Shown one piece after another: positions 14,272-39,236 of a stretch of 46,901 nucleotides of DNA (position 1 is its first letter; every line of letters starts with the position of its first letter). Source of the DNA: an uncultured Bacteroidales bacterium (lineage in GTDB: Bacteria > Bacteroidota > Bacteroidia > Bacteroidales > Paludibacteraceae); contig CALMUD010000262.1 of NCBI GenBank assembly GCA_937872735.1, positions 1 to 46,901 on the forward strand. The letters run 5' to 3'. Under the pieces are notes generated by a model. That model did not search any database, was not told the origin of the DNA, and was given only the letters and a program-made list of their open reading frames with translations. The translations under genes and the position numbers were made by a program.

Positions 14272-14766
14272 TTACTTTTCCTCAGAAGGAGTCTCTTCAA
14301 CTACAGTTGCATCAGAGACCTCATCAGCCTTCTTCTTTGCAGAAGAACGACGAGTACGAGTAGACTTCTTGCTTGCTGTAGTCTTGCCCTTGAGCATGTT
14401 CTCATCATAATCAACCAACTCGATAAAACACATCTCAGCAGCATCACCCAAACGGATGCCAGTCTTGATGATACGAGTATAGCCACCATTGCGGCTTGCG
14501 ATTTTCTGAGAAACCTCACGGAAAAGTTCAGTAACGGCCTCTTTATCCTGAAGGTAACTGAACACCACACGACGGGAATTGGTAGAATCATCCTTGCTCT
14601 TGGTCAGAAGAGGCTCAACATAAACACGCAGAGCCTTAGCCTTAGCAACAGTAGTGGTGATTCTCTTATTCTTAGCCTTAATCAAAGAACAAGCCATGCT
14701 TGAGAGCAGAGCGCTACGCTCAGAACTCTTTCTGCTCAAATGGTTGAATTTCTTAATATGCTTCAT
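14272..14766 (-). CDS. rplQ: 50S ribosomal protein L17 with C-terminal extension
   Basis: A 164-residue bL17. The core (1-120) starts [20 protein letters not shown], close to the family's usual opening, and includes [16 protein letters not shown]. Bacterial L17 is typically about 120 residues; here a low-complexity tail of about 40 residues rich in Lys, Ser, Thr and then Glu ([20 protein letters not shown]) is added, a feature also known from other Bacteroidota. It is the last gene of the ribosomal block, 4 bases after rpoA, directly before the terminator. Confidence 0.97.
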
Positions 14767-14770
14767 TTTA

Positions 14771-15763
14771 TTACTCTTTATCTAATTTATATTTCGAGAT
14801 ATCCATGCCGAAGGATAGATCAAGGCTGTCGAGCAACTGCTCAAGCTCGGTAAGAGACTTCTTACCAAAGTTACGGAACTTGAGTAAGTCGTTCTTATTA
14901 AACACAACCAAATCGCCAAGAGTCTCGACATCAGCAGCCTTAAGACAATTAAGTGCACGGACCGAAAGATCCATATCCACCAACTTGGTCTTAAGCAACT
15001 GGCGCATGTGAAGAACCTCCTCATCAAATCCATCCTCATTATCGCCATCACGAGAGTCGATCGTAATCTTCTCATCTGAGAACAACATGAAATGATAGAT
15101 AAGAATCTTGGCAGCCTCTTTCAAAGCATCCTTAGGATGAATTGAGCCATCTGTTTCTATCTCCAAAACCAACTTTTCGTAGTCGGTCTTCTGCTCAACA
15201 CGATAATTCTCAATCGTGTATTTTACATTGCGGATAGGAGTAAAAATAGAATCAATAGCAATCAAACCGATTTCTGATCCTGGAATCTTATTTTCATCAG
15301 CCGGTACCCAACCACGGCCCTTGGCTATGGTCAGTTGGATGTGAAATTCAGTACCAGGGTTGAGATGGCAAATTGCCAAATCAGGGTTCAACACCTCAAA
15401 ACCTGTTAAACTCTTAGTTATATCCCCGGCATTGAACACTTCGGTCCCCGAAACGGTCAAATCTACCTTTTCGCTTTCAACCTCCTCCACTTTCTGCTTA
15501 AAGCGTACTTGTTTGAGGTTAAGGATAATATTAGTAACATCCTCTACAACACCAGGGATATAAGAGAACTCATGGTCAACTCCATCAACCTTCATCGAAG
15601 TGATGGCGAAACCCTCCAAAGAAGATAACAAAATTCTTCTCAGGGCATTTCCTATGGTGATTCCATATCCCGGTTCCAACGGACGAAACTCAAACTTACC
15701 CTTGCAGTTGTCCGCCTCCAACATTATAACTTTATCGGGTTTTTGAAATGCTAATATAGCCAT
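14771..15763 (-). CDS. rpoA: DNA-directed RNA polymerase subunit alpha
   Basis: A 330-residue alpha subunit. The N-terminal domain (about 1-230) has [20 protein letters not shown], which drives dimerisation and beta/beta' assembly. A linker rich in acidic residues ([11 protein letters not shown]) leads to the C-terminal domain (about 255-320) with [20 protein letters not shown] and [19 protein letters not shown], which contacts UP elements and activators. It sits between rpsD and rplQ as in most bacterial alpha operons, 17 bases after rpsD and 4 bases before rplQ. Confidence 0.99.
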
Positions 15764-15780
15764 GGATAAATTATTATTTA

Positions 15781-16386
15781 TTATTTAGAGTATAACTCGA
15801 CGATTGATTGTTCCTTGATATTCTCAGGGATATCAGTTCTCTCAGGCACATACGAATACTTACCTGACATTGTTGTGTTATCCCACTCTAACCAAGGATA
15901 CTTGCTGTGATTGAATCCAGCCAATGAGTTAGCGATAGCCTCTAAAGATTTCGACTTCTCACGTACGCCTACAATCTGACCTGCCTTAAGCAAATAAGAA
16001 GGGACATTGACGATTTCGCCGTCAACTACGATGTGACGATGAGAAACCAACTGACGTGCAGCTGCGCGCGTTGGGGCCATACCCAAACGATAAACCACAT
16101 TATCCAGACGAGACTCCAACAACTGAAGAAGAACCTCACCAGTTACACCCTTTGAGCTAGATGCCTTCTCAAAAAGGTTACGGAACTGGTTTTCCAACAC
16201 ACCATAAGTGTATTTAGCCTTCTGCTTTTCAGCCAGCTGATTACCGTACTCCGATACCTTCTTTCTTCTGTTCACTCCATGCTGTCCTGGCGGAAAGTTA
16301 CGCTTTGCCAGAACCTTGTCGGGACCGAAGATAGCTTCACCAAATCTACGAGAGATTCTCGTCTTGGGACCAATATATCTTGCCAT
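15781..16386 (-). CDS. rpsD: 30S ribosomal protein S4, cysteine-free (zinc-independent) form
   Basis: A 201-residue uS4, a primary 16S rRNA binder that nucleates 30S assembly. It opens with [20 protein letters not shown], and the S4 RNA-binding domain spans about 92-155 ([20 protein letters not shown], then [10 protein letters not shown]). There is no cysteine in the whole protein, so the N-terminal zinc knuckle of the C+ form is absent. A 111-base gap separates it from rpsK in an otherwise tightly packed block, and S4 is a known autoregulator in other bacteria. Confidence 0.98.
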
Positions 16387-32316: not shown

Positions 32317-32425
32317 TAGTTTATTTTCTTTTTATTTGTAACATTTTCAGCACGTTTGCATCTTCTTTTCCCAGCTTTCCCAATTTATATCATCTTTCCT
32401 CTCTCTATTTTCCCCTTAAATAAAT

Positions 32426-32433
32426 TATATTTG
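32426..32433 (+). promoter_or_regulatory. -7 promoter element of the PgpH-type gene
   Basis: TATATTTG followed by CA, 33 bases before the ATG at 32467. Its position rules against the longer reading frame that opens at 32356. Confidence 0.65.
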
Positions 32434-32466
32434 CAAAATGAGATTAAGCACCCTTACATTATTTAT

Positions 32467-34671
32467 ATGGAAGAACAAATAAACGACGAAAAGTGGAAAA
32501 GCGAGGCCAGGGAAAAAGCCAGACTGGCGATGGAAGAGGCTCAACGCAACAAAATAGAAGCTCAAAAGGCGCACAAAGAATCGGTAAGAAACGAACGGAA
32601 AAAATTGTTCGTCATGGCGCTACTGTTCTTTGCCGCTGCGGTCGTCATTGTTTACATTTTCCCTTCCTCCGGACGATTCAAATACAATTATGAGGTTGGT
32701 AAGCCCTGGGCCTACGAGAATCTGACGGCTCCCAGCAGCTTCCCCATTCAAAAATCGAGTTCTGAAATTGACAGGGAATACGGACAGTTGCTACGACAGA
32801 GCTATCGTCCATGCTATACGGTAGACAACAATACCGCCGATAAGATGCAGAAGATTTTTGCTGAAATCAGTTCCAGCAAATCCACAGCCATTGCGACTGC
32901 CCATTCCCAATACATTTCAGCTCAGCTGAAAGAGATATATAAAGAAGGTATACTCTCAAACGATGATTTGGACCGTCTGAACAAGATGGGCATCAAAAGC
33001 ATTAAAATAAGGAAGCAGGACTCCGAAGGCGGCCCAAGCTACTATACCGAGCAGCCTATCAAAAACATTTACACCATAAAGAATGCTTATGAGAAAATAA
33101 TCGAAGCGGCACCCGCTGGGCTCGATAAAAACATTCTGAGGTCCTATAACATCAACAATGTGCTGGTATCCAACCTTGATTTTGACAAGGAAATTTCCGA
33201 CCAGCTGAGGAGCGAACTTTATAAGGAGATTTCACTCAACAAGGGCATGGTACAGAATGGGGAGAAAATAATTGACCATGGCGACATCGTATCACCCCAC
33301 ACCTATGAGATTCTCAATTCCCTTCGTTCCGAAATGGAGACAGGCCATAAGAGTCAGCGCAGCACCTCTGTACTCACGGGGCAGAGCATCTGCATTCTCT
33401 GCATCTTGTCAGCCTTTTTTCTATATATGGGATTGTTCAGAAAGCGCTTCGTGTGCGTCAAGAATATCTTTTTTATGCTGTGCCTCATTGTCGGCTTGTG
33501 TGCGCTCACCGCATCAATCACCAAATTGGGGAATGAGGAGATTTTTGTGACTGTATACCTTATACCATACGCGCTGCTGCCGATTACCATCAGCACATTT
33601 TTCGATACCCGTACCGCATTGTTTTCTCACCTCACCACCGTTCTGCTGTGCTCACTGATTGCTCCTCACGAATTTGAGTTTCTTATGTTGCAAATAATTG
33701 TGGGCATGATATGTATCAGCACCTTAAAAAATATATATCAAAGGGCCCAGTTAATAAGGTCGGCGGGCATCATAGCCGGCATCTACATTCTGTGCTACTC
33801 AGGACTCGCACTGATACAAAATGGGGGATGGGAGAGGAAAGACAATATAGTGTTAGTCTCCTTCATCATCAACGGTGGTTTGCTGCTGTTCGCCTACCCT
33901 TTCATATATATCATGGAGAAATTGTTCAGTTTCGTTTCCGATGTCACATTGGTGGAATTGACCAACACCAACAATCCGTTACTGCTTCAGTTTGCCGAAG
34001 TTGCACCTGGCAGTTTTCAACACTCGCTGCAAGTCTCCAATCTGGCGGCTGACGCGGCCATTGCGATAGGAGCCAATCCAATGCTGGCAAGGGCTGGCGG
34101 CTTGTACCACGACATAGGAAAAATCGGAAATCCTATTTACTTTACCGAGAATCAGAAGGATTTCAACCCCCATCAGTTTCTTACCGAGCGCGAAAGTGTG
34201 CAGGTTATCACCCGTCATGTGACAGATGGCATCATCATTGCCAAAAAGAACGGATTGCCACAGCAGATACAAGACTTCATTGAGACACACCATGGAAAGA
34301 ATCTGGTGCGTTACTTTTACAACACCTACGTCAACCGGCACCCCGACGAGGCTGTCGATAAGGCTCTGTTCTCCTATCAGGGCAAATTGCCTGCCACCAA
34401 AGAGACCGCCATCGTCATGATGTGCGATGCCGTCGAGGCTGCCTCTAAAAGTCTGGACAGATATACGGATGAGACCATCAACACGCTGGTAGAAAACATC
34501 ATCGGCACGCAAATAAAGGAATGTGCCTTTGCCGAGGCTCCCATCACCATCAAGGAAATTGAAGAAGTTAAAAACACACTGAAAGAAAAGCTGAAAAATA
34601 TGTACCATACCCGAATCCGGTATCCTGAACTGAGAAGGGACGCAAACGTGAATGTCCAGACGGGCAAGTAA
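32467..34671 (+). CDS. 7TM-HD family phosphohydrolase, probable cyclic-di-AMP phosphodiesterase (PgpH type)
   Basis: A 734-residue inner membrane protein. A charged cytoplasmic N-terminus precedes TM1 (about 46-66), then an extracellular 7TMR-HDED domain of about 230 residues, a bundle of transmembrane helices (about 305-495) and a cytoplasmic HD domain. The metal-binding H548-D549 lie in GGLYHDIGKIGNPIYF, preceded by PGSFQHSLQVSNLAADAA and followed by ITRHVTDGIIIAKKNGLP, and MMCDAVEAASKSL. This architecture is that of PgpH, which hydrolyses c-di-AMP. The ATG at 32467 is preferred over 32356 because a promoter lies between them and the extra 37 residues look non-coding. It diverges from rpsL and ends in a strong terminator. 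Confidence 0.9.
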   Translation: MEEQINDEKWKSEAREKARLAMEEAQRNKIEAQKAHKESVRNERKKLFVMALLFFAAAVVIVYIFPSSGRFKYNYEVGKPWAYENLTAPSSFPIQKSSSEIDREYGQLLRQSYRPCYTVDNNTADKMQKIFAEISSSKSTAIATAHSQYISAQLKEIYKEGILSNDDLDRLNKMGIKSIKIRKQDSEGGPSYYTEQPIKNIYTIKNAYEKIIEAAPAGLDKNILRSYNINNVLVSNLDFDKEISDQLRSELYKEISLNKGMVQNGEKIIDHGDIVSPHTYEILNSLRSEMETGHKSQRSTSVLTGQSICILCILSAFFLYMGLFRKRFVCVKNIFFMLCLIVGLCALTASITKLGNEEIFVTVYLIPYALLPITISTFFDTRTALFSHLTTVLLCSLIAPHEFEFLMLQIIVGMICISTLKNIYQRAQLIRSAGIIAGIYILCYSGLALIQNGGWERKDNIVLVSFIINGGLLLFAYPFIYIMEKLFSFVSDVTLVELTNTNNPLLLQFAEVAPGSFQHSLQVSNLAADAAIAIGANPMLARAGGLYHDIGKIGNPIYFTENQKDFNPHQFLTERESVQVITRHVTDGIIIAKKNGLPQQIQDFIETHHGKNLVRYFYNTYVNRHPDEAVDKALFSYQGKLPATKETAIVMMCDAVEAASKSLDRYTDETINTLVENIIGTQIKECAFAEAPITIKEIEEVKNTLKEKLKNMYHTRIRYPELRRDANVNVQTGK

Positions 34672-34681
34672 AAGCAGACAG

Positions 34682-34715
34682 AAAATTTCTTAGGGAATAA
34701 TATACCTGTTGACAC
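34682..34715 (+). repeat. Left copy of an imperfect inverted repeat
   Basis: The core TTAGGGAATAATATACCTG continues TTGACAC and is repeated in reverse complement at 35542-35574 with three mismatches in 26 bases. An AAAATTT extension matches on the outer side after a one-base gap. The pair brackets the hypothetical gene at 34883-35506. Confidence 0.7.
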
Positions 34716-34741
34716 GTTTTTTTGTAATAGGCACATAAAAC

Positions 34742-34780
34742 AAAAAGCGGAAAACCCTTTTGTGGTTCTTCCGCTTTTTT
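34742..34780 (+). terminator. Terminator after the PgpH-type gene
   Basis: AAAAGCGGAA (34743-34752) pairs with TTCCGCTTTT (34769-34778), extended by AACC/GGTT with one bulge, and ends in a six-T run. Confidence 0.85.
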
Positions 34781-34828
34781 AGTAAATTTAGGACAAGCCT
34801 AAAATAGACAATTCCGTAAAAATATTCT

Positions 34829-34836
34829 TATATTTG
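34829..34836 (+). promoter_or_regulatory. -7 promoter element of the hypothetical gene at 34883
   Basis: TATATTTG followed by TAA, 46 bases before the ATG. An inverted repeat TTTAGG-5-CCTAAA (34787-34803) lies in the upstream control region. Confidence 0.55.
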
Positions 34837-34882
34837 TAAGATTATTATTGTTATGTGATATTTATCTATAAAGATAATAATT

Positions 34883-35506
34883 ATGGATAAGATAAATCTT
34901 ACGGAATCACAATTGCACAGAATAATTAAAGAAAGTGTAAAGACAATATTAGTTGAAATCGGATATAGGACTGCGACACTTGCAGCAGGTGCTAATATGA
35001 AAGCTAATAATGATATTCGTAATGGTATCATATATTATGGCAAAAGAAATAGGAATAATATGGATAAAGTTGACCAATCAGCCAAATTAGATTATAAAGC
35101 AATCTCTCAATCAGTGATTGATAATGTAGGAGCATTTACCTTGCTGTTCTTAAAAACAGAAAAAGAAGGATATCTTACAAGTTTGGTAAAGTTTCATTTC
35201 AATGAGATTATATATTTAAGCAATAACTGCTTTATAATGCAAGGTGTTACAGAAATGTCAAAACATCCTATACCAAGTAGTAAATATAGACCCAAGCCTG
35301 TTTATGTTAAAATTCAATATAACTTTAACACTCAGCTATTTACAGAAGTCGTATATTGCGCAAATGGAACTATTAGACGTAAGGATATATTAACTCTTAT
35401 CACAGCAGAGGATGTTGGCGCAGAAAATAAGGCAACAGCGGATTCTTTACTCTTACATATGAGTAATTGCCTTTATTCAATTGAAGATTATCAAAGTTCA
35501 TTATAA
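34883..35506 (+). CDS. Hypothetical protein with N-terminal LTESQLHRIIKES motif, AT-rich accessory gene
   Basis: A 207-residue protein I cannot assign to a known function. It begins with a short amphipathic helix (INLTESQLHRIIKESVKTIL), a motif I recall from other Bacteroidota accessory and phage-related proteins of unknown role. The middle and C-terminal parts read as alternating beta strands (SLVKFHFNEIIYLSNNCFIM, VYVKIQYNFNTQLFTEVVYC). There is no signal peptide or transmembrane segment, so it is probably cytoplasmic. Base composition is far more AT-rich than neighbouring housekeeping genes, and it is bracketed by inverted repeats at 34682-34715 and 35542-35574. It has its own promoter. 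Transfer from elsewhere is likely. Confidence 0.7.
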   Translation: MDKINLTESQLHRIIKESVKTILVEIGYRTATLAAGANMKANNDIRNGIIYYGKRNRNNMDKVDQSAKLDYKAISQSVIDNVGAFTLLFLKTEKEGYLTSLVKFHFNEIIYLSNNCFIMQGVTEMSKHPIPSSKYRPKPVYVKIQYNFNTQLFTEVVYCANGTIRRKDILTLITAEDVGAENKATADSLLLHMSNCLYSIEDYQSSL

Positions 35507-35513
35507 AATAAGA

Positions 35514-35547
35514 TGACACACTAATATTTATTCAATTTAGAGTGTCA
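35514..35547 (+). repeat. Hairpin after the hypothetical gene
   Basis: TGACAC (35514-35519) pairs with GTGTCA (35542-35547) across a long AT-rich loop. The right arm is the inner end of the 35542-35574 repeat. Terminator function is doubtful. Confidence 0.35.
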
Positions 35548-35574
35548 ACAAATATATCATTCCCTAAAAATTTT
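35542..35574 (-). repeat. Right copy of the imperfect inverted repeat
   Basis: Its reverse complement, TTAGGGAATGATATATTTG then TTGACAC, matches the left copy at 34682-34715 with three mismatches. It ends 8 bases before the ATG at 35583, so it also forms the immediate upstream region of that gene. Confidence 0.7.
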
Positions 35575-35582
35575 ATAAAAAT

Positions 35583-36017
35583 ATGATACTAAGTAATTAC
35601 GTTGAAGGCATAGGCATGCGTCCCGCCCCTACGATAAAACACAAGGACAAAGAAAATGATTTTCAATTTAACATTTACAATATAATCAACCGAACAAAAT
35701 ATAGGGTATATCAGGAAGCTGCCTTGTATGGTGACTGTAACGAGCTGATTCCAGATATAAGTGTTGTTAAAAGAAAAACATTCGAACCGATTCTTTTGAT
35801 TGAAATAACGACACACATAATGCTTGATAAGATAAAGGATAAAATGATAGAAATAAGAAATAGAATTGGGGAATGTGAACTTTTCGTTTACGATTATGAT
35901 ACCGAAAAATGGTATAATATGAACTATGATGATGAAGAGGAACAGACCTGTAAAGAACATTTATACTGCAAATTGATTAGTCATCAGATAAACTATATAA
36001 ACAAGGAAAATTATTAG
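35583..36017 (+). CDS. Small Uma2/PD-(D/E)XK-like protein of unknown function
   Basis: A 144-residue AT-rich gene product. The central part follows the Uma2 (DUF820) pattern of the PD-(D/E)XK nuclease superfamily: an early acidic residue in YQEAALYGDCNE, then LIPDISVVKRKTFEPILLIE, then lysines in DKIKDKMIEIRNRIGECELF and VYDYDTEKWY. The expected (D/E)xK is IEIT here, as in many Uma2 proteins, so nuclease activity is uncertain. No -7 element is visible before it; the inverted-repeat arm at 35542-35574 occupies its upstream region. It may be transcribed by read-through from the preceding gene. The fold assignment is an inference from motif spacing only. Confidence 0.65.
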   Translation: MILSNYVEGIGMRPAPTIKHKDKENDFQFNIYNIINRTKYRVYQEAALYGDCNELIPDISVVKRKTFEPILLIEITTHIMLDKIKDKMIEIRNRIGECELFVYDYDTEKWYNMNYDDEEEQTCKEHLYCKLISHQINYINKENY

Positions 36018-36033
36018 AAGGTATTAAATCCTG

Positions 36034-36059
36034 AAAGCTCCGTGGCGACACGGGGCTTT
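36034..36059 (+). terminator. GNRA-capped hairpin after the Uma2-like gene
   Basis: AAAGCTCCGTG and CACGGGGCTTT pair over 11 positions (one G-T) around a GCGA tetraloop. It has no T-run, so termination would be weak; it may be a structured RNA element. Confidence 0.6.
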
Positions 36060-36120
36060 AAATGTTCCAAAAGAACATTTCACCACTACCCTTGCCGTTT
36101 GCCGACATCCTTCGGTTTTT
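36060..36120 (+). repeat. Second and third hairpins of a stem-loop cluster
   Basis: AAATGTTC-CAAAA-GAACATTT (36060-36080) is a perfect hairpin abutting the previous one with no gap. CCGA-6-TCGG (36102-36115) followed by five T resembles a small terminator. Together with 36034-36059 they form three stems within 87 bases. Confidence 0.5.
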
Positions 36121-36228
36121 CGCTTGTTTTTGTTCAATATTTCTACAATATATCATTCCATTTATTTTGTCAATTATCTGAATATTAGTACATTTTTCAT
36201 ATAAGATATAAAGCAACTGTTTTAATTT

Positions 36229-36453
36229 ATGGGCAATTTATCCACTATACAGACTGTTGATGTATGCACCATCAAGAAGGTGATGCAGCTGCTGAGCATG
36301 AGCAAAAGCACAGCCGGCAGATATATAAGTCTGTGCCGTGACATATTGCACTTACTCGTTGTAGCTTACCTGTGGCTGGATTTTCACAAAAGTATCTTAT
36401 TTCCCAACCGCACGGGTATTCTTTCAGTGTCGCCGGCAAGTAGGCAAAAGTAG
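36229..36453 (+). pseudogene. Truncated mobile-element HTH protein running into antisense integrase sequence
   Basis: The frame encodes 74 residues, but only the first 40 or so look real: TIKKVMQLLSMSKSTAGRYI and SLCRDIL are a helix-turn-helix of the small DNA-binding proteins found beside integrases in Bacteroidota mobile elements. From about 36350 the frame reads through the opposite strand of the integrase fragment (36351-36472) and the residues lose any family character. I interpret this as the N-terminal remnant of an HTH gene fused to unrelated sequence by a deletion. A functional short protein cannot be excluded. Confidence 0.55.
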
Positions 36454-36472
36454 GATTTTCGAATTGAGACAT
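36351..36472 (-). pseudogene. N-terminal fragment of a tyrosine integrase
   Basis: From the ATG at 36472 the minus strand reads MSQFENPTFAYLPATLKEYP and CGWEIRYFCENPATGKLQRV. This is the arm-binding N-terminal segment of Bacteroidota site-specific tyrosine recombinases (strand pattern PA-LKE...W-I-YYV..P.TGKL). After about residue 40 (36353) similarity ends abruptly and the frame continues into the antisense of the HTH fragment. The SAM-like core-binding and catalytic domains are missing, so it cannot recombine. Its ATG is 110 bases from the 3' end of tRNA-Arg, the typical place for the integrase of a tRNA-targeted element. Confidence 0.6.
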
Positions 36473-36512
36473 TTTTTTCTTCTGAAACAGAGTCCCAAAA
36501 GAAAAGTGCCGC

Positions 36513-36553
36513 AAAACAGCCGCACTTTATTTTAAAATACGGCTGTTTTTTCT
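36513..36553. terminator. Terminator-like hairpin downstream of tRNA-Arg
   Basis: AAAACAGCCG (36513-36522) pairs with CGGCTGTTTT (36540-36549), with T tracts on both strands. On the minus strand it would end the tRNA-Arg transcript. Confidence 0.7.
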
Positions 36554-36581
36554 ATGTAATATTCTGATTTTCAATTATTTG

Positions 36582-36655
36582 TGATTGAGAAGGGATTCGA
36601 ACCCTTGACCCACAGCTTAGAAGGCTGTTGCTCTATCCAACTGAGCTACTCAACC
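36582..36655 (-). tRNA. tRNA-Arg (anticodon TCT, codon AGA)
   Basis: A 74-base tRNA on the minus strand. The acceptor GGTTGAG pairs with CTCAATC (one G-T) and the discriminator is A. The anticodon stem ACAGC/GCTGT encloses loop CTTCTAA with anticodon TCT. The T arm is AAGGG/CCCTT with TTCGAAT. CCA is not encoded. Its 3' end faces the accessory region and the integrase fragment. Confidence 0.97.
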
Positions 36656-36734: not shown

Positions 36735-39056
36735 TTAGAATGGATACCCAATGGCGAAATGGAAAGCGAAATCATCACTCCATGTAATGTCGTGATAACG
36801 CCACCGCTCCCCATCGGGCAAAGCCGGGTCATAGGCTTTCATTCCCACATCCAAACGGATTAAAAAATAGGTAAAATCACAACGCAGTCCCAATCCATAG
36901 GCCATGGCTATCTGTTTATAAAATTCATCTAAATGGAATGTTCCTTCGGGCTGGAAATCATAATTCTTAATATTCCAGATATTGCCGGCATCGACAAAGG
37001 CTGCGCCCTCAAATTTCCAGAAAAGTTTAGACCGGTATTCTATATTTGCTGTCAATTCTATATTACCCGATTGGCTCACGAAGTCCTCCGAATTAGGAGA
37101 AGTATAGGTACCAGGCCCCAGAGTACGGACAGCCCAACCTCTCACACCATTCGCACCTCCCGCAAAAAAACGTTTTTCGAATGGCACCATTTCGGCGTTT
37201 CCATAGGGAAATTCCACACCTGTCTTTATATGAAACACAAGTCGGTTCTTATCATCAACATACTTGTTCAACGCATATTCAAATTCGCCCTTCACATATT
37301 GCGAATAAGGGATATTGGCTATCTGATAGGCTCCGTTATACTTGTTCTGATGCGTGAGGGTGCTGATGCCATAAAGCAGGTTGCCCGCACTTTCAAACGA
37401 GATTTTATAGGAAGTTTTATCCAGATGCCTCGTGCTGCTTTCGTTATCGAATGTCATTGCAGCACCGGCATCAAAAATAAAATGGTCAGAATAGCTGTAA
37501 CGAAGCACCGAATATTTGGAATCGGCATACCGCTGTTCAAAGGCGGCCGACATCCATGGAATATACACATAATTAAGATTGAAAGCGTCAATAGAATAAC
37601 TGTAATAGCGGCGTACATTCCACACATACTTGGTTCCCGCTGTGGTGATGATACGATTATATTCCGGACGTTTCTGGTTGTCATAAGCCAACGTGAATTC
37701 TGTGGATGAATTGACTTTCTGCTTGAACGAAGAGGAAAGGAAAGGGAACACAAAACGGGGTATTTTCAGTGACAGCTCCCCATCCAGTTCCAGCGCATTT
37801 TTATTAAGGATGTCGGGAATTTTGTTGTCCGTATTCGATATGGCTTCTTCCGACACTCGCATTTTAAATCCGAGTACTTCTGAACCATGAAACAGATTTC
37901 GGTCTTCCAAGCCCGAAGATACGGCAAATCCCAAATCACCTTCCGAGTTGGTTCCTTCCAAATCTAGCGAAAACGAACGTATCTTATTAGGTGTCAGTGT
38001 AATATTGCATTCTAATTCATTATCCGCAGTCCGTAAATCTCTGAAATGGATATCCGTAGACTTGATAACATCGAGAGTACTAAACTTATTGTAGGTACGG
38101 TCCACATAGATGTCGTTATACCACATGCCAGGGTATAGACGAATGTTGTCAGCAAGAACATGTTGACGCACCAAGGGTTTCTTATCGTAATAAAGGACAA
38201 CACCCGGTTTGATAGTCGTTGAATCATAGCTGGACAGAGGCTGCGCTGCCGCTGATGATTTACTCAGCATCAGCACATTTATCTGCTTCACCGTATATCG
38301 CGGGTGCAGCGTTTCCTCCACATCTCCATTGGAAGATGACACATAATAGGGCTTGAGTTGCAGGGTGACATCCACCTGATGACTGTCAAGAGAGCTGTCC
38401 ACCATATAGGAGATATTGTCCTTAGTAAAGAAATAATAACCGCGACGGCGTGCCAACGTGGTCAATCGTGCCCTCTCGGCATTAAGCACATCAGAATCAA
38501 ACAGCATTCCCGAATCTAGCTTCGTCTCACTATATTTTGCTGATGCAAATATATTGCCCAATACGGTATCGTTATGATAGTCAAGCGTGATATGCCTCAC
38601 TCTGTATGGCTGGGATTCCTGCACATGATATACCACATAAGCGCGTTTCTTTCGATACTCTACCGTACTGGTTACTTGCGCGTTCAGATAGCCCTTTGTC
38701 TTAAAATACTGTTGCAGTTTTTTCTCTGATTTCACAGTCAGGTAGGGATCATACACTACAGGTGGCTCTCCCATGCGCTTCAGCCAGCGATTTCTGCGTT
38801 TGGAGGTGTCTCTACCCGACATATTATAAGTAGCAAGCCTTATGCGGGATATTCCAAACACCTTGAAGTTGGGCTGCTGGCACAGATAGGATTCCAGCGT
38901 TTTGGCATCAATTCCAGGTGCTTTTGATTCTATATCAGTTTTTTCCAATAGATATTGGCCGTCTGATATATATTTGGTGGTTGAGCACGAAAATAATGTC
39001 AGCACCGATAACAGTGCCAACCCCATTTTCAGACTGATTGATTCAAAAAATTTCAT
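36735..39056 (-). CDS. tamL: Translocation and assembly module lipoprotein TamL (BamA/Omp85 family)
   Basis: A 773-residue outer membrane protein. The N-terminus MKFFESISLKMGLALLSVL ends in the lipobox LFSC with C24, so it is lipid-anchored, unlike classical TamA. POTRA-type domains follow (KTKGYLNAQVTSTVEYRKKR, RRGYYFFTKDNISYMVDSS), then a 16-strand-type barrel. The conserved Omp85 segment is FAGGANGVRGWAVRTLGPGT (VRGW motif), with the C-terminal strand ending FAFHFAIGYPF. In Bacteroidota TamL partners TamB in outer membrane assembly; tamB is not in the window. The start at 39056 is chosen over an upstream in-frame ATG because it gives the lipoprotein signal and the promoter at 39075-39082 lies in the alternative extension. 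Confidence 0.92.
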   Translation of the reverse strand: MKFFESISLKMGLALLSVLTLFSCSTTKYISDGQYLLEKTDIESKAPGIDAKTLESYLCQQPNFKVFGISRIRLATYNMSGRDTSKRRNRWLKRMGEPPVVYDPYLTVKSEKKLQQYFKTKGYLNAQVTSTVEYRKKRAYVVYHVQESQPYRVRHITLDYHNDTVLGNIFASAKYSETKLDSGMLFDSDVLNAERARLTTLARRRGYYFFTKDNISYMVDSSLDSHQVDVTLQLKPYYVSSSNGDVEETLHPRYTVKQINVLMLSKSSAAAQPLSSYDSTTIKPGVVLYYDKKPLVRQHVLADNIRLYPGMWYNDIYVDRTYNKFSTLDVIKSTDIHFRDLRTADNELECNITLTPNKIRSFSLDLEGTNSEGDLGFAVSSGLEDRNLFHGSEVLGFKMRVSEEAISNTDNKIPDILNKNALELDGELSLKIPRFVFPFLSSSFKQKVNSSTEFTLAYDNQKRPEYNRIITTAGTKYVWNVRRYYSYSIDAFNLNYVYIPWMSAAFEQRYADSKYSVLRYSYSDHFIFDAGAAMTFDNESSTRHLDKTSYKISFESAGNLLYGISTLTHQNKYNGAYQIANIPYSQYVKGEFEYALNKYVDDKNRLVFHIKTGVEFPYGNAEMVPFEKRFFAGGANGVRGWAVRTLGPGTYTSPNSEDFVSQSGNIELTANIEYRSKLFWKFEGAAFVDAGNIWNIKNYDFQPEGTFHLDEFYKQIAMAYGLGLRCDFTYFLIRLDVGMKAYDPALPDGERWRYHDITWSDDFAFHFAIGYPF

Positions 39057-39074
39057 AACCCGCTTAATTACGTG

Positions 39075-39082
39075 CAAATATA
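39075..39082 (-). promoter_or_regulatory. -7 promoter element of tamL
   Basis: Minus strand TATATTTG followed by CAC, 18 bases before the ATG at 39056. Confidence 0.65.
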
Positions 39083-39236
39083 CAGCATTTGCGGTGGATG
39101 ACAGGCAAATCGGGGACTTATTTTTCATCTATTCATTTCCGTATGCTCTCACTCTTTTTCTTCCTGACTCCATCCTTTTTAGATACAGGAGGAAGAAAAG
39201 CGACATCTTCATACATTCCGTAATCTGTTTTTTTTA

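What the first reader, a model, noticed from the sequence alone, without database searches (positions are those of the whole stretch)
36229..36472. Two mobile-element gene fragments converge on a sharp junction near 36350
On the plus strand an HTH protein is recognisable up to about 36348; on the minus strand an integrase N-terminus is recognisable down to about 36353. Each frame then runs into the antisense of the other. This suggests a deletion that removed the rest of both genes and joined their 5' parts, leaving the scar of an integrated element beside tRNA-Arg.
Basis: partly seen in the sequence, partly recalled or inferred. Interest (0 to 1): 0.6.

Follow-up and report, generated by a model that had tools for sequence, protein, structure and literature searches.

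The report
Deletion scar of a tRNA-integrated prophage-like element
Next to an arginine tRNA gene of a Bacteroidales genome lie the first ~40 codons of two genes of a phage-like element, joined head-on because the ~15 kb between them was lost; this is an ordinary dead remnant, though an unusually clean one.

Summary
Profiles built only from other genomes each hit exactly one of the window's 830 six-frame ORFs. A small HTH family matches the plus strand up to 36348 (E=5e-12, profile positions 3-32 of 53). A tyrosine-integrase family matches the minus strand down to 36353 (E=2e-7, positions 4-43 of 385). At most 4 bp separate them. None of 32 integrase alignments crosses the junction.

In an intact analogue (L190), the HTH gene and the integrase face each other across ~15 kb of element, and the integrase abuts tRNA-Leu. 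One internal deletion of such an element gives exactly this junction. The integrase starts 108 bp from tRNA-Arg(TCT); in intact elements the gap is 106-128 bp.

Two corrections. HTH is not the element's far end: in a bounded relative it lies ~6 kb inside. The outer part and distal att are also unrecognisable here, so more than one loss, or erosion, occurred.

In three congeners this tRNA is preceded by two other genes and has another 3' flank. Assembly error is not excluded. No function is likely. Ordinary finding, low interest.

The parts
36229..36348 (+). 5' part (about 40 codons) of a small HTH protein gene of a prophage-like element; homologues are about 51-64 aa, so the last ~20 residues are missing
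   Evidence: Independent profile E=5e-12, positions 3-32 of 53; alignment A2
36349..36352 (.). deletion junction (uncertain to 4 bp)
   Evidence: HTH similarity ends at 36348, integrase similarity ends at 36353; 32 integrase alignments all stop at residue 39-40
36353..36472 (-). 5' part (40 codons of ~385-420) of a tRNA-targeting tyrosine integrase gene; core-binding and catalytic domains missing
   Evidence: 63% identity over 30 aa to a ~420 aa integrase, E=1e-8; independent profile E=1.6e-7, positions 4-43 of 385; alignment A1
36473..36580 (-). tRNA-integrase interval with a terminator hairpin (36513-36549); probable attL-side flank carried in by the element
   Evidence: About 81% identical over 83 bp to the flank of tRNA-Arg(CCG) in the same genome; three congeners have a different conserved terminator here; in relatives att repeats or shared flanks include the terminator
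36581..36655 (-). tRNA-Arg(TCT), the integration target; intact
   Evidence: ARAGORN
34672..36228 (+). A+T-rich island (30% GC) with two orphan ORFs (34883-35506, 35583-36017); probably acquired DNA, perhaps cargo of the same element; no distal att found
   Evidence: GC 0.304 against 0.45 in flanking genes; absent at this position in three congeners; no informative relatives; att search negative

Best explanation
An integrative, phage-like element of the Bacteroidales inserted at the 3' end of tRNA-Arg(TCT) through its own tyrosine integrase, bringing a tRNA 3' flank with its own terminator. Inside the element the small HTH gene and the integrase gene faced each other with the structural genes between them. 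A later internal deletion (about 15 kb by analogy with L190) cut both genes after about 40 codons and fused their 5' parts head-on. The outer part of the element and its distal att site were lost or eroded as well. The element cannot excise or replicate any more; the tRNA presumably still works, using the element-borne terminator. Shown: the homology of both fragments, where it ends, the geometry in an intact relative, and the tRNA next door. Inferred: that a single deletion made the junction, its size, the origin of the terminator, and the inertness of the remnant.
For: Profiles from other genomes hit only these two frames in the window, ending within 4 bp of each other. All integrase alignments stop at the junction. 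L190 has HTH(+) 360-575, ~14 kb of element genes, integrase(-) 14723-15982 and tRNA-Leu(-) 16020, the required geometry, with 50% identity of its integrase N-terminus to the fragment. Elements of the same kind with a second integrase branch show the same order in G028, G017 and G142. Integrase start lies 108 bp from the tRNA, against 106 bp in L068 and about 128 bp in L190. Relatives integrate at tRNA 3' ends: a 29-bp exact att copy in G143 at tRNA-Pro and a 92-bp att repeat that includes the terminator in G017. In three congeners the tRNA-Arg(TCT) 3' flank and the neighbouring genes differ. Own genome holds only three PF00589 proteins of about 296-311 aa, none the missing C-terminal part.
Against: No distal copy of the tRNA-Arg 3' end was found in the window, and the outer replication-type module seen in relatives is missing, so a single deletion does not explain the whole state. 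No intact element at tRNA-Arg(TCT) was found to align the breakpoints. The parent element is unknown at DNA level. The genome is a draft of 268 contigs, and read support for the junction could not be checked.
Confidence: 0.84

Rival explanations
1. The junction is an assembly artefact: the assembler joined two reads or strain variants, and the living population carries the intact element.
For: The genome is fragmented and 85% complete; the exact 30-base junction sequence is in no other held contig.
Against: Contig C262 runs 36 kb to the left and 10 kb to the right of the junction with conserved chromosomal genes on both sides. No contig of the own genome carries the remaining integrase part.
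Confidence: 0.07
2. The two fragments come from two different elements that inserted one after the other at the tRNA (tandem accretion) and were fused by a deletion across their boundary.
For: HTH homologues occur in elements with two different integrase branches, so HTH and integrase are not strictly tied; the HTH gene is ~6 kb from the far att in G017.
Against: The same two genes occur together in the right geometry in one element, L190; one element needs fewer events.
Confidence: 0.06
3. An inversion with one breakpoint in each gene joined the 5' parts; the 3' parts are joined elsewhere.
For: Inversion between two genes on the same strand also joins 5' parts head-on (reasoning).
Against: The own genome has only three PF00589 proteins, all complete proteins of ~300 aa, and no second HTH hit; in intact elements the genes face each other, so a deletion suffices. 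About 15% of the genome is missing.
Confidence: 0.02

Closest known systems
Prophage remnants / cryptic integrative elements at tRNA 3' ends left by internal deletion
   Same: Truncated integrase directly beside the target tRNA, foreign A+T-rich DNA, loss of most element genes
   Different: Distal att repeat not recognisable; both gene ends meet within 4 bp
Intact phage-like element of L190 (G189:C214) at tRNA-Leu(TAG)
   Same: HTH gene and integrase of the same families, same convergent order, integrase beside the tRNA
   Different: Not truncated between the two genes, at another tRNA, only distantly related in sequence (50% identity over 30 aa of the integrase N-terminus)
Phage_integrase (PF00589) tyrosine integrases of Bacteroidota prophages (e.g. 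Porphyromonas phages in the INPHARED collection, about 30% identical to L190's integrase)
   Same: N-terminal segment of a related integrase subfamily
   Different: Fragment has no core-binding or catalytic domain

Membership tests
Functional tyrosine integrase (PF00589) | Catalytic domain (PF00589) | tested here: not met
   Only profile positions 4-43 of 385 are present; no PF00589 domain in the window fragment
Functional tyrosine integrase (PF00589) | N-terminal segment typical of this integrase subfamily | tested here: met
tRNA-integrated mobile element (remnant) | Integrase gene reading away from the 3' end of an intact tRNA at a short distance | tested here: met
   108 bp here; 106-128 bp in intact relatives
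tRNA-integrated mobile element (remnant) | Direct repeat of the tRNA 3' end at the far end of the element | tested here: not met
   No copy with up to 3 mismatches in the window, nor by blastn in 6.5 kb; the method does find it in G143 and G017
Small HTH family of these elements | 51-64 aa protein with T-I-K-x-V...S-x-S-x-A...R core | tested here: met
   N-terminal 30 positions match; C-terminal ~20 positions missing
Deletion scar | Breakpoints aligned to an intact element at the same site in a close strain | tested here: inconclusive
   No element of this integrase family at tRNA-Arg(TCT) in about 70 loci surveyed

The most novel reading that the evidence does not exclude
The element-borne terminator and att half-site at tRNA-Arg were domesticated: in several genomes the tRNA-Arg(TCT) 3' flank looks like the att flank of a related element with no integrase left, so repeated visits by such elements may have replaced the tRNA's native terminator.
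Probability: 0.15. Interest if true: 0.4.

Novelty: new member of a known kind. Interest (0 to 1): 0.2.

Why it matters
It explains a foreign island beside tRNA-Arg and warns annotators that the two ORFs at 36229-36472 are not genes. The intact relatives used to read it are a little-annotated family of ~20 kb tRNA-integrated elements. The sharing of tRNA 3' flanks between tRNA loci of one genome could be a simple marker for past insertions even where the integrase is gone.

Tried and rejected
Pfam, PHROGs and NCBIfam scans of the two short ORFs gave nothing significant; fragments this short need a purpose-made profile. Searches with the complete ORFs in phages, plasmids, viral and genome collections found no homologue across the junction. 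A nucleotide search of 60 related genomes with 36017-36580 hit only the own tRNA-Arg(CCG) flank with confidence. A weak 17-nt repeat of the tRNA at 34631-34647 lies inside the HD-domain gene and was rejected as a distal att. Structure prediction was not used: the fragments are too short, and the rules of that tool do not list the loci I fetched from whole genomes. Papers searched did not name this element family.

Full report
WHERE IT LIES. The window is contig C262 of a 268-contig draft genome of 2.38 Mb, 85% complete. Gene content indicates Bacteroidales (my reading of the genes; no name is given). The tRNA-Arg(TCT) is at 36581-36655 on the minus strand. Right of it is a TamA/BamA-like gene (36735-39128, minus); left of it, beyond an A+T-rich stretch, a 7TM-HD-type gene (32356-34671, plus) (names from my own knowledge).

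THE OBSERVATION. The plus-strand ORF 36229-36453 and the minus-strand frame from ATG 36472 exist. Curated libraries do not recognise them. The first 40 residues of the minus frame match the N-termini of complete integrase ORFs, mostly of 385-423 aa, in many genomes of the family, best 63% identity over 30 residues, E=1e-8. The first 40 residues of the plus frame match ORFs of 51-64 aa, weakly one by one (best E=7e-4). To avoid circularity I built one profile from 11 HTH homologues and one from 14 integrases, none from the window, and searched all 830 stop-to-stop frames of 30 aa or more in the window. Each profile hit one frame: HTH E=5e-12, ending at base 36348; integrase E=1.6e-7, ending at base 36353. 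In a local tblastn against the loci fetched from other genomes, 32 loci matched the integrase ORF and every alignment stopped at residue 39 or 40.

WHAT THE PARTS ARE. The integrase relatives sit beside tRNAs: tRNA-Gln (L068, L069), tRNA-Leu (L072, L190), tRNA-Arg(CCG) (L071), tRNA-Pro (L073), tRNA-Ser (L168). The ones scanned are tyrosine integrases by Pfam (PF00589). In G143 the element at tRNA-Pro is bounded by an exact 29-bp copy of the tRNA 3' end some 21 kb away. The HTH homologues lie in phage-like elements with a DUF5906 primase-helicase-like protein, a transglutaminase-like protein, a J-domain protein, a glucosaminidase and ParE toxins.

THE GEOMETRY. In L190 (G189:C214) the HTH gene is at 360-575 plus, the integrase at 14723-15982 minus and tRNA-Leu(TAG) at 16020-16102 minus. 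The two genes point toward each other. Counting residues, the two junction points correspond to about L190 515 and 15752, so about 15 kb would be missing here (my arithmetic). G028, G017 and G142 show the same order with a second, more distant integrase branch. A deletion between the two genes gives exactly the arrangement in the window. The integrase start lies 108 bp from the tRNA here, 106 bp in L068 and about 128 bp in L190 (counting from the homologous start).

WHAT THE SIMPLE READING DOES NOT COVER. In G017, whose element is bounded by a 92-bp repeat, the HTH gene is about 6 kb from the far att. In the window only 1.6 kb separates the HTH fragment from the HD gene, with two orphan ORFs at 30% GC, and there is no copy of the tRNA-Arg 3' end. 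So the outer end was lost or eroded too. In three congeners two genes (a beta-propeller lipoprotein-like gene and a DUF6057 gene) stand between the HD gene and tRNA-Arg(TCT); in the own genome this pair is on contig C186 in another context. The locus has therefore been rearranged more than once, and order and cause are open.

THE FLANK. The 3' flank of tRNA-Arg(TCT) (about 36486-36580, with a terminator hairpin) is about 81% identical to the flank of tRNA-Arg(CCG) in the same genome, whereas three congeners share another terminator at this tRNA. A like pattern recurs: in G143 the tRNA-Arg(TCT) flank is 97% identical over 72 bp to the flank of the tRNA-Pro that carries an element, and in G064 the tRNA-Arg(TCT) flank resembles that of the tRNA-Arg(CCG) that carries one. 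Since the G017 att repeat includes the terminator, I infer that such elements bring the terminator with them and that these flanks are att halves. This would support a past insertion here independently of the gene fragments, but it is an inference from a few cases.

ALTERNATIVES. Assembly error cannot be excluded without reads, but conserved chromosome lies on both sides and no piece with the rest of the integrase was found in the draft. Two elements fused across a boundary, or an inversion, need more events. No homologue spans the junction in any collection searched.

VERDICT. A confirmed observation with a supported interpretation: the scar of a tRNA-integrated, phage-like element. It is ordinary biology, cleanly resolved. 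Interest 0.2.

Noticed in passing
window 36486-36580 and L050:6102-6194; L122 and L073; L089 and L071: Within one genome, the 3' flank of tRNA-Arg(TCT) is similar (81-97% over 55-90 bp, terminator included) to the flank of another tRNA; in G143 and G064 that other tRNA carries an integrated element. Looks like att halves left by element visits.
   Followed up: partly
window 34672-36580; L063, L064, L065; L075:10684-14060: Two genes (DUF6057 and a beta-propeller lipoprotein) lie between the HD gene and tRNA-Arg(TCT) in three congeners but on another contig with other neighbours in this genome.
   Followed up: partly
L190:1-16102, L199-L200, L201-L202, L078: Family of ~20 kb tRNA-integrated phage-like elements with DUF5906 primase-helicase, transglutaminase and J-domain proteins; the structural-looking proteins scanned match nothing in PHROGs or Pfam, and none of the proteins scanned was recognised as a terminase or portal.
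   Followed up: partly
L201:6077-6152 and L202:5948-6039: Element at tRNA-Pro(TGG) bounded by a 92-bp direct repeat (97%) that spans the tRNA 3' end, its terminator and some flank beyond.
   Followed up: yes
L079:12435-14949: Another cluster of small element genes (HTH homologue, DUF5618-like) beside tRNA-Pro with no integrase recognised, possibly another remnant.
   Followed up: no
window 35583-36017: Orphan 144-aa ORF with a C-terminal part that reads like a nuclease-fold (Uma2-like) protein by eye; no library match.
   Followed up: no
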